IMG/VR virus record: IMGVR_UViG_3300031957_001318 | Span: 1 to 54,503 of that record | Direction: 5' to 3' (one strand) | Origin: a virus | Length of the DNA: 54,503 nucleotides | Shown: positions 7,397 through 41,088 of the stretch, piece by piece | Position numbering within the stretch: the first letter of the stretch is position 1 | Layout of the letters: each line of letters starts with the position of its first letter | The notes under the pieces: generated by a model | The model's database searches: none | The model's input: the letters and a program-made list of their open reading frames with translations, nothing else | Told to the model about the DNA's origin: nothing | Translations under genes and position numbers: made by a program

Positions 7397-7802
7397 CTTC
7401 AACCGGCAACCGCATCATACCAATCGCGTCATCACGATACGCGGAACCTGCGACAAATGGGGTTTCGCGTATCTTCACGTTTAGGTCTGAATATGTCAGC
7501 CGCAAGTCTTTAGGAAAATGCGCGCGGATCAAGCCAACCACGCCCATGCGCTGCATATGCGTCCAAGTCATCGGCGTGAGGACTGACACCATGAATGTAC
7601 CACGATGAAAGTCTGGCGCGTCTGTTGTAACGTACTCGCGCGACGGATCAAACCGCACGTCATCCGTTAGCAAGAACGCGGTATTTGCAGGCGGGTCATA
7701 TGTCTCGCCCGGTTCGCTGATGTAGTAGCCGCCTGACATGGATGCGAGGCGGTCGCGTAGGGCGGCGTAGATTTTCGCGTCTAGGTTTGTGATTAGTGGC
7801 AT
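7374..7802 (-). CDS. Tail terminator-like protein
   Basis: 142 residues located between the HK97 gp10-like completion gene and the tail tube gene, the usual site of a tail terminator (lambda U, DUF4128 type). Sequence features fit: an N-terminal helix (ITNLDAKIYAALRDRLASM), a central beta segment (TFMVSVLTPM) and a C-terminal strand (RLPVEVRWWAWG). The product would cap the tail tube and join it to the head. Confidence 0.72.
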   Translation of the reverse strand: MPLITNLDAKIYAALRDRLASMSGGYYISEPGETYDPPANTAFLLTDDVRFDPSREYVTTDAPDFHRGTFMVSVLTPMTWTHMQRMGVVGLIRAHFPKDLRLTYSDLNVKIRETPFVAGSAYRDDAIGMMRLPVEVRWWAWG

Positions 7803-7820
7803 TATTGGCTCCGATGGGGA

Positions 7821-7849
7821 TTGACAGGCGAATTGTCATAGTGTAAGGA
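7821..7849 (+). promoter_or_regulatory. Promoter of the TTGACAGGC family (RNA ligase)
   Basis: TTGACA at 7821-7826 followed by GGCGAA, then a 17-base spacer to TAAGGA at 7844-7849. The AGGAGG and ATG of the RNA ligase follow. The TTGACAGGC(A/G)AA start is shared with sites at 13989 and 22511. Confidence 0.6.
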
Positions 7850-7873
7850 TAGCGTGTCAAATAGGAGGTTACT

Positions 7874-8770
7874 ATGACACAGTTTGTTAAGTACATGCAT
7901 CTTGAGCGTTTTGGCTCTGATGAAGTTGATGGCATTGAAGTGGGTAAAACTCTTGTGTTTCCGAAACTTGACGGCACCAATGCACAGGTTTGGCTGAATG
8001 AGGATGGCTCTATCGGATGCGGTTCGCGGAACCGTGTTCTGTCCGTTGATGCTGACAACGCCGGGTTTATGAATTGGGCGATTGATCAGCAGAATATCAA
8101 ACAGTACCTTACGTCGCATCCGAACCATACGCTTTACGGTGAATGGCTTGTCCCGCATAGTCTGAAAACGTACCGCGACGACGCTTGGCGTCGGTTCTAT
8201 GTGTTTGATGTTTTCGACCACGCGGACGGGCGGTTTATCCCGTATGACGATTACAAGGATGGCATCGAGCGGCATGGCCTTGACTTTGTAACGCCAATCG
8301 CCATCGTCAAAAACGGCAGCTTTGATAAGTACCTGCAATGCCTTGACCACAACACGTTTGCCATTAAGGACGGTGAAGGTATTGGCGAAGGTGTCGTTAT
8401 CAAGAACTACGACTTTGAAAACAAGTATGGCCGCGTCGTGTGGGCGAAGATCGTTACCACGGCATTCAAGGAAATGCACGTTGCGGCGATGGGCGCGGCT
8501 GAGATTGGCGGTCTTTGCGTCGAGGAAATCATTGTCAACGATTGCGTCACCAAGCATCTTGTCGATAAAACTCACGCCAAGATTGAAGCCCAAAATTTCG
8601 GCTGGAATAGCAAGATGATCCCGCAACTTCTCGGTATGGTCTGGCATGATCTTATCACCGAGGAAATTTGGGATATTCTGAAGAAACATAAGAACCCGCG
8701 TATTGACTTCCGTGCGTTGCAGCGGTTTTGCATTGCTAAGGTAAAAGAGCTAAGATCGGACTTGTTCTAA
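7874..8770 (+). CDS. RNA ligase (T4 Rnl2-like superfamily)
   Basis: 298 residues of the covalent nucleotidyltransferase superfamily. Motif I is KLDGTN with the adenylated lysine at residue 31. Motif III-like YVFDVF follows at about 117, motif IV is EGVVIKNYD at about 173, and motif V is WAKIV at about 191. A helical C-terminal domain completes it. Such enzymes join 3'-OH and 5'-phosphate RNA ends using ATP. The gene lies antisense among tail genes with its own promoter, and a tRNA-Asn gene begins seven bases after its stop, suggesting one transcript. A DNA ligase is less likely because no oligonucleotide-binding domain or zinc site follows. Confidence 0.9.
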   Translation: MTQFVKYMHLERFGSDEVDGIEVGKTLVFPKLDGTNAQVWLNEDGSIGCGSRNRVLSVDADNAGFMNWAIDQQNIKQYLTSHPNHTLYGEWLVPHSLKTYRDDAWRRFYVFDVFDHADGRFIPYDDYKDGIERHGLDFVTPIAIVKNGSFDKYLQCLDHNTFAIKDGEGIGEGVVIKNYDFENKYGRVVWAKIVTTAFKEMHVAAMGAAEIGGLCVEEIIVNDCVTKHLVDKTHAKIEAQNFGWNSKMIPQLLGMVWHDLITEEIWDILKKHKNPRIDFRALQRFCIAKVKELRSDLF

Positions 8771-8777
8771 TCTTACT

Positions 8778-8853
8778 TGCTGGGTAGCTCAGATGGTAGA
8801 GCGTCCGACTGTTAATCGGATGGTCGCGGGTTCGATCCCCGCCCCAGCAGCCA
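8778..8853 (+). tRNA. tRNA-Asn (anticodon GUU) with encoded CCA
   Basis: A cloverleaf of 76 bases. The acceptor stem is TGCTGGG with CCCAGCA, the D arm is AGCTC/GAGC, the anticodon stem TCCGA/TCGGA holds the loop CTGTTAA with anticodon GTT, and the T arm is GCGGG/CCCGC with TTCGATC. Discriminator G and CCA are encoded. It begins 7 bases after the RNA ligase stop, and the next minus-strand stop codon abuts its end. Confidence 0.97.
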
Positions 8854-10922: not shown

Positions 10923-11259
10923 ACACCGAGGCCACCGGCTCCCCAGCCCCTTTATAATTAATGATCCGCACGACAGACACAACGTCACCGTCGATGCGGA
11001 TCATGTCGTTATTTTCCATATCGACCACGCCTTGGCATAGCACTTGCCTATCGCTGGCAAGCACCGTAGTGCCGTCAACGTATTTTTGCGACACGCCGCT
11101 AACCACCGCGTCAATCCGCGTCCATGTCGTCGTGACGGTCGGAGGGTCCCATTCGTTCGCGCCAGCAACCGTGGTCGACACCCCGATCTCGACAACGCCT
11201 TGATTGTACTTTTCCAGTAGCCGTCCAGCCGTGCCTCGCATACGGTCATAGAGTGGCAT
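10909..11259 (-). CDS. Head-tail joining protein
   Basis: 116 residues. The start MPLYDRMRGTAGRLLEKYNQ and the later beta-rich half (DGTTVLASDRQVLCQGV, MIRIDGDVVSVVRIINY) match head-tail joining proteins of the FII/gp9 style that follow the connector gene. I chose the ATG at 11259, seven bases after GGAG, rather than 11286. It lies between the DnaT-like connector and the MuF gene. Confidence 0.72.
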   Translation of the reverse strand: MPLYDRMRGTAGRLLEKYNQGVVEIGVSTTVAGANEWDPPTVTTTWTRIDAVVSGVSQKYVDGTTVLASDRQVLCQGVVDMENNDMIRIDGDVVSVVRIINYKGAGEPVASVFIVR

Positions 11260-37730: not shown

Positions 37731-38423
37731 ATGCATCCTAACTGCACTATCCACAACGTCGATCAAGGCAGTCCAGAATGGCACGAAGCCCGCAACGGAC
37801 TAATCACGGCATCCGAGGTCAAACTTATCCTCACGCCGAAATTTAAAATGGCGGATAACGAAAAAACCCGACAGCACATTTACGAATTGGCGGCGCAACG
37901 TATCTCGGGCTATACAGAGCCGACATACATCGGTGATGAGATGCTGCGCGGTCATGCGGACGAGGTAACAGCGCGTGACCTCTATAGCGAACACTATGCG
38001 CCTGTAACTGAATGCGGGTTTATCACGAGGGATATTGGCGGCTCTGTTCTGGGGTATAGTCCGGACGGCATTGGCTTGATTGATGATTTCGGAATTGAGT
38101 GCAAGTCGAGGCGTCAGAAATATCAGGTGCAGGTGATCACTGCCAACGAGGTTCCAGAAGAACACATGTTGCAAGTGCAAGCTGGTCTATTGGTAACGGG
38201 TTGGGATCGGCTGGCGTATATCAGTTATTGCGGCGGGTTGCCTATGTGGGTGATTGACGCTGAACCTATTGCGGCATATCAGGACGCGATTACGGAAGCG
38301 GTCATGAAAACGGAGGAAAAGATTAAGGAAACCATGGATCGGTATTATGAGCGGCTGAGTAAGGCCAAGGTGATCGAGACTGAGCGGGATATTGACGCGA
38401 CAGATGTAGAAATTTACACCTGA
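37731..38423 (+). CDS. YqaJ-type exonuclease (lambda exonuclease-like recombinase)
   Basis: 230 residues. It begins with DQGSPEWHEARNGLITASEV, a YqaJ hallmark, then GHADEVTARDLYSE, VLGYSPDGIGLIDDFGIECK with the catalytic D and ExK, and HMLQVQAGLLVTGWDRL. It probably resects DNA ends for single-strand annealing or replication repair, together with SSB (40.0 kb). An annealing partner such as RecT was not found by eye. Confidence 0.92.
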   Translation: MHPNCTIHNVDQGSPEWHEARNGLITASEVKLILTPKFKMADNEKTRQHIYELAAQRISGYTEPTYIGDEMLRGHADEVTARDLYSEHYAPVTECGFITRDIGGSVLGYSPDGIGLIDDFGIECKSRRQKYQVQVITANEVPEEHMLQVQAGLLVTGWDRLAYISYCGGLPMWVIDAEPIAAYQDAITEAVMKTEEKIKETMDRYYERLSKAKVIETERDIDATDVEIYT

Positions 38424-38437
38424 CTTTGTTAATTCAC

Positions 38438-38521
38438 CGGCATCCTTTAAACTTGTCGGGCTAGGGAGCGCGCCAACGCTCGACCTAGCCCTATCAACGG
38501 CAAGAGAAAAGGATATCGCCG
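38438..38521 (+). promoter_or_regulatory. Long hairpin sequestering the GIY-YIG start
   Basis: A nested stem-loop: 38438-41 with 38518-21, 38442-48 with 38508-14 (this covers the AAGGAT ribosome site), 38452-57 with 38499-504, 38458-65 with 38484-91, and 38466-70 with 38477-81, loop 38471-76. In total about 30 base pairs. The GTG start at 38521 is at the base of the stem. It should block translation of the endonuclease from transcripts in which the whole stem forms. Confidence 0.85.
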
Positions 38522-39285
38522 TGACTAAGATTGAGATAACACCTAAGTATTCTGAGGTCAAGCCACAGGGTTATTATGTATATGTCCACAAAAGAGCAAC
38601 GAATGGAACGCCATTTTACGTTGGAAAGGGCAAGGGTAGACGGGCGTGGGATAGGAGTAAGAGTGATTGCAGATCAGATCATTGGATAAATTGTGCATTA
38701 AAAAATGGCGTTATTGTTGATGTGATTTGTGACGGCATGGATGAAAAATCAGCCTACAAGATGGAAGCTGATGTTATATCATCATTTAGATCGGAATGCA
38801 TTGATCTCGTAAACCAATCAGAAGGCGGCATAGGCCCTATCGGATTAGTTGTTTCCGAAGCTACTAAGGAAAAGATATCAAGTGCTTTTCAATTTAAAGT
38901 GTGGAATGATGATGGCGAGGAGTTTCGCAACACTTGCGCGGCAGCTAGGGAAATGCGAAACAGGGGTTATCCAAGGGCGGCGGCATCTGGTATTTTTGCA
39001 GCAATAAAGGGCGAAAAAAGTAAGACGGCATATGGTTATGCTTGGTCTAATATTTGCGTTCCAGACAAGCCAAAATCAACTGGTTATCACGCATCAAATG
39101 AAGGCAAGATGCTTCCAGTTTTATGTGTTGACACTGGTATGAAATTCGTGTCATGTAGTGAGGCTGCAAGATGGGTTGCCAGCGTTGGAAGGCCTAGCGC
39201 AAGGGGTTACCGTATATCTTCTTGTGCAAAAGGTGAATCAATGACAGCGTATGGAATGAAATGGAGGTCCTTAGAAAGTGAATAA
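38521..39285 (+). CDS. GIY-YIG homing endonuclease with NUMOD-like repeats
   Basis: 254 residues. The GIY-YIG nuclease domain lies at 15-115: YYVYVHKRATNGTPFYVGKG is the GIY and YVG pair, followed by Arg in GRRAWDRS and the conserved Glu/Asn region (LVNQSEGGIG). Downstream repeats at about 125-250 (KVWNDDGEEFRNTCAAARE, FVSCSEAARWVASVGRPSARG) are NUMOD-like DNA-binding modules. It sits between YqaJ and the 192-residue gene, overlapping the latter by 8 bases. Probably a free-standing homing enzyme. Confidence 0.9.
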   Translation: MTKIEITPKYSEVKPQGYYVYVHKRATNGTPFYVGKGKGRRAWDRSKSDCRSDHWINCALKNGVIVDVICDGMDEKSAYKMEADVISSFRSECIDLVNQSEGGIGPIGLVVSEATKEKISSAFQFKVWNDDGEEFRNTCAAAREMRNRGYPRAAASGIFAAIKGEKSKTAYGYAWSNICVPDKPKSTGYHASNEGKMLPVLCVDTGMKFVSCSEAARWVASVGRPSARGYRISSCAKGESMTAYGMKWRSLESE

Positions 39286-39856
39286 AGATGTAACTCAGGC
39301 GATTGCCGCCCGCTCTGATCAGCTAAATGCTGATGATTTAGTAAGCGGCCCTATGACTATCAAGATCACAGACGTTAATGTTAAATCGTCATCAGATCAG
39401 CCTATTGAAATCTCGTTTGAAGGTAGCGCGAAGCTATTTCGCCCCTGCAAGACAGCCGCCAGATGCCTAGCCGCTGTCTGGGGTCCGAACGCTGCACAGT
39501 GGACGGGGTTGCATTGCACGATCTACAATGACCCAACCGTGACTTGGGCTGGCGCTGCGGTTGGTGGAATTCGTGTGTCGCATATGGAGGGCCTTGATAA
39601 GCCGCGCCAATTGAGCCTGAGCAAGACTAGAGGAAAGAAATCTACTGTCACCATTCAACCGCTTGTGATGAATGATGCGCCTGCCGTTGATAATACAGCC
39701 GTACTTGATGAAGCCCGCGCCGAAGCCGCAAAAGGTAAGGACGTGTTTACTGTTTGGTGGAAGGCGAATAAACAACATCACGACGCGGTAATGCCTATCA
39801 TGGGTGAATTGAAGGCGTTGATGGAAAAGGCTATTGATGATGAAGTGCCACTTTAA
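39278..39856 (+). CDS. Conserved phage protein, recombination region
   Basis: 192 residues with GTG start after GGAGGTCC inside the end of the endonuclease gene. Contains MTIKITDVNVKSSSDQPIEI, then SAKLFRPCKTAARCLAAVWG and TIYNDPTVTWAGAAVGGIRV, a pattern shared by an uncharacterised family that often stands near exonuclease and SSB genes. A role in recombination or DNA binding is suggested by neighbours only. Confidence 0.75.
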   Translation: MNKDVTQAIAARSDQLNADDLVSGPMTIKITDVNVKSSSDQPIEISFEGSAKLFRPCKTAARCLAAVWGPNAAQWTGLHCTIYNDPTVTWAGAAVGGIRVSHMEGLDKPRQLSLSKTRGKKSTVTIQPLVMNDAPAVDNTAVLDEARAEAAKGKDVFTVWWKANKQHHDAVMPIMGELKALMEKAIDDEVPL

Positions 39857-40485: not shown

Positions 40486-40515
40486 TTGACACCCACACAC
40501 CGCGCCTTGTATGGT
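40486..40515 (+). promoter_or_regulatory. Promoter with overlapping hairpin, before GIY-YIG gene 2
   Basis: TTGACA at 40486-40491, an 18-base spacer and TATGGT at 40510-40515. A ten-base-pair palindrome (40497-40506 with 40513-40522, loop TTGTAT) covers the -10 box and could be a protein-binding site or an RNA hairpin. Confidence 0.65.
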
Positions 40516-40542
40516 GCGGTGTAGTCATATGGAGGTTAGCGC

Positions 40543-41088
40543 GTGACATATAAGCGCAAGGAAGTTATTGGCGGACTATTGAAAGATGTTTCTTTTACAG
40601 GCTTCCCTAGGAACATCACAATATACGGAATTGGAACACCAGAAACAGTTTATGTTGGAAGCACAAATCAGACTATAGAGTCTCGCATTCGTGCGCATGT
40701 TTCAATGGCTGTAGCAGGAAGTGACACGCCGATCCACATTTGGATGATGGAAAGAAAGTGTGAGTTTGATGTAATTCACTTGGAAACATGCGCAGCTGAT
40801 CGGCGTGAAGAAAGGGAACGGTACTGGATTTCACATTTTGGCGATGGCCTCCTAAATGTAACAGATGGTGGTCCCGGTATGTCTGGCAATCTATTTGCGG
40901 GAACCGGCCATGCTGAGAAAATTGCAAATAAATTGCGTCTAGGAACCAATTTCGCTTGTGAGGTATGCGGGGTAGAATTTTGGAGAAAGCCAAGGGATAT
41001 AAAACTTGGAAATACTAGGTTCTGTTCTCGCGCCTGCTATCAGTTCTGGCAAAAAGGTAAGCCTAAAAGAAGGGTTAAGAATAAATGA
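40543..41088 (+). CDS. GIY-YIG endonuclease with C-terminal zinc finger
   Basis: 181 residues, GTG start after GGAGGTTAGCGC. The nuclease domain is at about 26-110: ITIYGIGTPETVYVGSTNQT is the GIY and YVG pair, ESRIRAH supplies the Arg, and LLNVTDGGPG fits the end of the domain. A C-terminal zinc finger has CEVCGVEFWRKP and FCSRACYQFW. This combination is typical of homing endonucleases that bind via a short zinc-finger region. It precedes the methyltransferase gene with a 4-base overlap. Confidence 0.88.
   Translation: MTYKRKEVIGGLLKDVSFTGFPRNITIYGIGTPETVYVGSTNQTIESRIRAHVSMAVAGSDTPIHIWMMERKCEFDVIHLETCAADRREERERYWISHFGDGLLNVTDGGPGMSGNLFAGTGHAEKIANKLRLGTNFACEVCGVEFWRKPRDIKLGNTRFCSRACYQFWQKGKPKRRVKNK

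What the first reader, a model, noticed from the sequence alone, without database searches (positions are those of the whole stretch)
38438..38521. Thirty-base-pair hairpin that buries the ribosome site of a GIY-YIG endonuclease
Five nested stems run from 38438 to 38521. The AAGGAT site pairs with ATCCTTT and the GTG start is in the closing stem. In T4, hairpins that hide the ribosome site delay homing endonuclease expression until a late promoter makes a shorter transcript. The same principle is probable here, and the structure is very long.
Basis: partly seen in the sequence, partly recalled or inferred. Interest (0 to 1): 0.68.

Follow-up and report, generated by a model that had tools for sequence, protein, structure and literature searches.

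The report
Hairpin hiding a phage nuclease's start
In the genome of an uncultured phage, the messenger RNA just before a selfish DNA-cutting gene can fold into a long hairpin that covers the ribosome's landing site and start codon; this probably keeps the gene quiet on read-through transcripts, a kind of control already known from phage T4 and its relatives.

Summary
RNA 38434-38524 folds into a 33-bp imperfect hairpin (-42.3 kcal/mol, z about -5, none of 200 shuffles as stable). AAAGGAT (38508-38514) pairs with ATCCTTT (38442-38448), and the GTG start (38521-38523) pairs with CAC (38435-38437). The gene is a free-standing GIY-YIG homing endonuclease whose predicted nuclease domain matches I-TevI. 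It sits between a YqaJ exonuclease gene and its usual downstream neighbour; the nearest relatives without the endonuclease have no comparable hairpin there. Clearing the start site costs about 15 kcal/mol, rank 3 of 111 called starts in the window. A transcript that begins after about 38444 frees it.

Burial of the ribosome site is well supported by computation, and translational repression on exonuclease read-through RNA is the best reading. The T4 'late promoter' half is not supported: no promoter stands out from chance. Release by RNase III cleavage, or constant low translation, stay open. Endonuclease relatives do not bury the site more often than other genes, although a few (L072, L145, Motura) do so with unrelated sequences. 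The mechanism is textbook (I-TevI, segB, mobE): a new member of a known kind, in a phage outside the T4 group.

The parts
38434..38524 (+). 33-bp imperfect RNA hairpin covering the SD and start codon of the endonuclease gene
   Evidence: MFE -42.3 kcal/mol, z -5.3, 0 of 200 shuffles as stable
38442..38448 (+). anti-Shine-Dalgarno arm ATCCTTT
   Evidence: pairs with 38508-38514; 14 of 2000 shuffled 5' flanks do as well
38458..38491 (+). inner stem-loop GGGCTAGG-GAGCG / CGCTC-GA-CCTAGCCC
   Evidence: no T run after it, so not an intrinsic terminator
38508..38514 (+). Shine-Dalgarno AAAGGAT, 6 nt before the GTG
   Evidence: sequence; clearing SD to start costs about 15 kcal/mol
38521..39285 (+). 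free-standing GIY-YIG homing endonuclease gene (254 aa, GTG start)
   Evidence: phrog_314 E 8.9e-15; conserved Y21, YVGKG, R41, E82, N98; model matches the I-TevI catalytic domain, Z 9.8
37731..38423 (+). upstream YqaJ/RecE-type exonuclease gene; its read-through RNA would carry the hairpin
   Evidence: PF09588 E 1.5e-12
39278..39856 (+). downstream gene (phrog_11517), overlapping the endonuclease end; neighbour of the exonuclease gene in relatives

Best explanation
The hairpin is a cis-acting translational silencer of a free-standing GIY-YIG homing endonuclease gene. Shown by computation: the endonuclease gene lies between two genes that are neighbours in relatives, and in RNA that reads through from the exonuclease gene the Shine-Dalgarno and start codon are locked in a stem that costs about 15 kcal/mol to open. 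Inferred: such read-through RNA yields little endonuclease. A ribosome that stops at the exonuclease stop codon (38421-38423) should not open the stem, because its leading edge would reach only to about 38433. RNA whose 5' end lies between about 38444 and 38507, from an internal start or from cleavage in the hairpin, would be translated. I cannot choose between these routes and a constant trickle of translation.
For: Fold and z-score. SD and start codon both paired. Opening cost 14.9 kcal/mol, rank 3 of 111 called starts in the window, mean 7.2; 7 of 282 SD-bearing control genes from other phage loci reach its cost. Anti-SD arm unlikely by chance (14 of 2000). Cost falls to 3-8 kcal/mol when the RNA starts at or after 38444. 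No comparable hairpin at the same junction in L024 or L027, which lack the endonuclease. SD-covering hairpins are documented for T4 I-TevI, I-TevII, I-TevIII and segB and Aeh1 mobE (PMC2988022, PMC3014915). Relatives L072 and L145 have unrelated hairpins over the SD.
Against: No homologous leader was found, so no covariation test. Burial is not significantly more common in endonuclease relatives than in other genes (108 against 476 starts, P 0.11; 49 against 282 with an SD, P 0.19). No internal promoter above chance. With RNA from 38300 or 38350 the predicted cost falls to about 11 kcal/mol, although ribosomes would cover the exonuclease part. Nothing was measured.
Confidence: 0.62

Rival explanations
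1. The hairpin is mainly an RNase III processing or RNA-stability element between the exonuclease and endonuclease messages, as between the early genes of T7 (from general knowledge). Cleavage would leave a protected 3' end on the exonuclease RNA and free the ribosome site of the endonuclease, so the net effect on translation could be positive.
For: Six collinear stacks of 33 bp in all are long enough for RNase III (general knowledge). A cut in the stem between about 38444 and 38507 lowers the opening cost. It lies between two genes on one strand.
Against: Bulges break the stem, and its longest unbroken run is short. A processing signal does not need an arm that matches the SD so exactly, and 5' flanks do this rarely by chance (14 of 2000).
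Confidence: 0.2
2. The hairpin has no selected role in control: a stable intergenic fold that came with the endonuclease insertion and covers the SD by accident.
For: Burial is not significantly enriched in the endonuclease family. 7 of 282 ordinary control genes are as deeply buried. Other places of the window fold more strongly for their composition.
Against: z -5 and 0 of 200 shuffles, exact 7-bp pairing over the SD, and start codon paired too; 14 of 2000 by flank shuffling.
Confidence: 0.13
3. The inverted repeat works as DNA: an operator or homing-site-like sequence bound by the endonuclease or another protein, as in I-TevI autorepression.
For: Inner arms GGGCTAGG / CCTAGCCC are a perfect 8-bp inverted repeat. 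I-TevI binds an operator that overlaps its own late promoter (PMC2988022).
Against: No promoter above chance is seen at the repeat, and the flanking repeats found are short and imperfect. The outer stems match RNA features (SD, start codon) that an operator does not need.
Confidence: 0.04
4. It is an intrinsic terminator of the exonuclease message.
For: G+C-rich inner stem-loop shortly after the exonuclease stop codon. Some endonuclease relatives do sit after terminators (L117, L118, L034).
Against: No T run follows the stem on either strand, and the terminator scan does not list it.
Confidence: 0.01

Closest known systems
SD-sequestering hairpins of free-standing phage homing endonuclease genes: T4 segB (GIY-YIG) and Aeromonas phage Aeh1 mobE (HNH) (PMC2988022, PMC3014915)
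   Same: Free-standing endonuclease gene inside a run of phage genes on one strand; stable hairpin over the SD on RNA from upstream.
   Different: A phage outside the T4 group; the start codon is paired as well; no late promoter inside the hairpin was found; repression not measured.
[quoted passage not shown]
   Same: SD buried on read-through RNA; I-TevI-like nuclease domain.
   Different: Not in an intron: no group I match, and the neighbouring genes have complete ends.
Hairpin before seg43(25) of Aeromonas phage 25 (PMC2988022)
   Same: Strong hairpin just upstream of a GIY-YIG gene; the second GIY-YIG gene of this window (40543-41088) has this layout.
   Different: In the gene under study the SD and start codon lie inside the stem; in seg43(25) the SD is free.

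Membership tests
SD-sequestering leader hairpin of phage homing endonuclease genes (I-TevI, segB, mobE type) | Stable RNA structure that pairs the SD of the endonuclease gene | tested here: met
SD-sequestering leader hairpin of phage homing endonuclease genes (I-TevI, segB, mobE type) | Gene lies downstream of other genes on the same strand, so that upstream RNA can carry the hairpin | tested here: met
   Exonuclease gene ends at 38423, 97 nt before the GTG, same strand. That they share a transcript is inferred.
SD-sequestering leader hairpin of phage homing endonuclease genes (I-TevI, segB, mobE type) | Late promoter whose RNA lacks the 5' arm | tested here: inconclusive
   Best candidate 8 of 12, as good in 29% of shuffles; no T4-type late promoter on this strand. 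The phage's own late promoters are unknown.
SD-sequestering leader hairpin of phage homing endonuclease genes (I-TevI, segB, mobE type) | Measured repression of translation by the hairpin | not testable with these tools
   needs reporter fusions and structure probing
Free-standing GIY-YIG homing endonuclease gene | GIY-YIG nuclease domain with its conserved residues | tested here: met
   Pfam PF01541 itself does not reach its cut-off.
Free-standing GIY-YIG homing endonuclease gene | Not inside an intron, and absent from the same site in relatives | tested here: met
   No intron RNA; absent from the junction in related loci
Free-standing GIY-YIG homing endonuclease gene | Cuts a target in relatives that lack it and is copied into it | not testable with these tools
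   needs cleavage and co-infection assays

The most novel reading that the evidence does not exclude
Outside the T4 group, phage homing endonuclease genes have repeatedly and independently gained leaders that bury the ribosome site (this window, L072, L145, Motura), and here release comes from cleavage of the long stem and not from a late promoter.
Probability: 0.12. Interest if true: 0.5.

Novelty: new member of a known kind. Interest (0 to 1): 0.3.

Why it matters
It would extend a control circuit known from T4-like phages to an unrelated phage, which suggests that keeping a homing endonuclease silent on host-gene RNA is a general need. A case without an obvious late promoter makes the release step a direct question. 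It does not change what is known about the mechanism.

Tried and rejected
Close homologues of the endonuclease or its leader: none in IMG/VR or GTDB genomes with the window protein as query, no DNA match in phage records, so no covariation test. Rfam: no RNA family here even at E <= 5. Intrinsic terminator: no T run. Group I intron: rejected. Internal sigma-70 or T4 late promoter: nothing above chance. Family-wide burial of the start site: 108 endonuclease starts against 476 controls, no significant excess. Leader hairpins in general (gaps of 40-130 nt) were stronger before endonucleases than before other genes (27 against 111, P 0.002), but most of them leave the SD free, some are terminators, and the samples are not independent. 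The paper on the mobE hairpin (PMC2655525) is not held, so it is cited through two reviews. Repeats flanking the insertion: only short imperfect ones.

Full report
Observation. The + strand at 38434-38524 folds into a hairpin of 33 pairs in six collinear stacks (MFE -42.3 kcal/mol, z -5.3; -43.0 and z -4.9 with flanks; none of 200 shuffles as stable). The Shine-Dalgarno AAAGGAT (38508-38514) pairs over its full length with ATCCTTT (38442-38448), and the GTG start (38521-38523) pairs with CAC (38435-38437). GTG is the only start codon available in frame before the conserved YYVYVHKR. Other places in the window fold more strongly for their composition, so stability alone is not the point; the placement is.

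The gene. The 254-aa product matches phrog_314 (homing endonuclease, E 8.9e-15) and keeps Y21, YVGKG, R41, E82 and N98 in its relatives. Pfam's GIY-YIG model does not reach its cut-off, but the predicted nuclease domain is closest to solved GIY-YIG domains, with the I-TevI catalytic domain first (Z 9.8, 85 residues, 2.4 A), and the C-terminus resembles the DNA-binding domains of I-HmuI (Z 7.6) and I-TevI (Z 5.5). The model is moderate overall (mean pLDDT 73) with the two end domains well predicted.

The place. The gene lies between a YqaJ-type exonuclease gene and a phrog_11517 gene. These two genes are close together in 26 related loci, often with 20-70 nt between the matches. At this junction the closest relative, L024, has a DnaQ-like exonuclease gene and L027 has nothing (18 nt); neither has a comparable hairpin. 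No clear DnaQ-like copy is left in the window. No intron RNA is detectable, and both neighbours have complete ends. The hairpin thus came with, or after, the endonuclease gene (inference).

Strength of burial. Clearing the SD through the start codon costs 14.9 kcal/mol, third of 111 called starts in the window (mean 7.2; some of those calls are surely spurious). By a slightly different measure 7 of 282 SD-bearing control genes from other phage loci reach its cost. With the core hairpin kept and the 5' flank shuffled, 14 of 2000 flanks bury the site as well. If the RNA begins at 38444 or later the cost drops to 3-8 kcal/mol. The hairpin starts 11 nt after the exonuclease stop codon, so ribosomes that finish the exonuclease should not open it (inference from the usual footprint of a ribosome).

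Comparison. Over 108 distinct endonuclease starts (49 with an SD), burial is not significantly more common than in 476 control genes. Single members show it with unrelated sequences: L072 (after a capsid-like gene; outer stem over AGGAGCGATT; z -7.3), L145 (15-bp perfect stem over the SD; z -7.4) and Achromobacter phage Motura, L037 (SD and start in a local stem; z -2.0). Others have a hairpin next to a free SD, or a terminator that ends at the start codon. Leader hairpins recur in this group; SD burial is one variant and not a family rule.

Mechanism. T4 I-TevI, I-TevII, I-TevIII and segB and Aeh1 mobE have SD-covering hairpins on RNA from upstream promoters, and late promoters that leave out the 5' arm (PMC2988022; PMC3014915). 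The first half fits here. For the second half I found no support: the best candidate, TTGTTA-16-TAAACT with a start near 38461, would be well placed, but shuffles give as good a site 29% of the time. RNase III cleavage of the long stem would have the same effect and is a serious rival. Constant low translation is possible too.

Verdict. A real and well-placed hairpin over the ribosome site of a real GIY-YIG gene, a new member of a known kind, with the release step unknown.

Noticed in passing
window 40486-40533, before the gene 40543-41088: A second GIY-YIG gene has an inverted repeat ACACCGCGCC-N6-GGTGCGGTGT that overlaps the best promoter-like site of the region (TTGACA-18-TATGGT, 10 of 12). 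Its SD is not buried (rank 42 of 111), a layout like seg43(25).
   Followed up: partly
L024 5690-5790: In the closest relative the SSB gene is followed by an intrinsic terminator and a TTGACG where the window has the inverted repeat and TTGACA, so a promoter after SSB may be older than the second endonuclease gene.
   Followed up: partly
L003 4209-4943 and L024 3310-4010: A DnaQ-like exonuclease gene fills the junction that the endonuclease gene occupies in the window; no clear copy is left in the window.
   Followed up: partly
L072 1421-1495: GIY-YIG gene after a capsid-like gene, with a near-perfect hairpin over the SD (z -7.3) and a TATAAT near the loop; a cleaner candidate for this mechanism than the window.
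   Followed up: partly
L145 600-690: GIY-YIG gene with its SD in a 15-bp perfect stem (z -7.4); the loop holds TTTGCGACAACTATGAAAAA, nearly a copy of the gene's own start ATGCGACAAACTATGAAAAA.
   Followed up: no
L117 and L118 near 1492; L102 near 1498: GIY-YIG genes whose ATG directly follows the T run of a terminator-like hairpin, mostly without an SD.
   Followed up: no
window 10941-11050: Strongest fold for its composition in the + strand scan of the window (z to -8.6), in a stretch where a - strand ORF was called.
   Followed up: no
window 7874-8853: An RNA ligase ORF (phrog_548, 7874-8770 +) directly precedes a tRNA-Asn gene (8778-8853 +), but overlaps a - strand ORF (7802-8689); perhaps a tRNA repair gene.
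   Followed up: no
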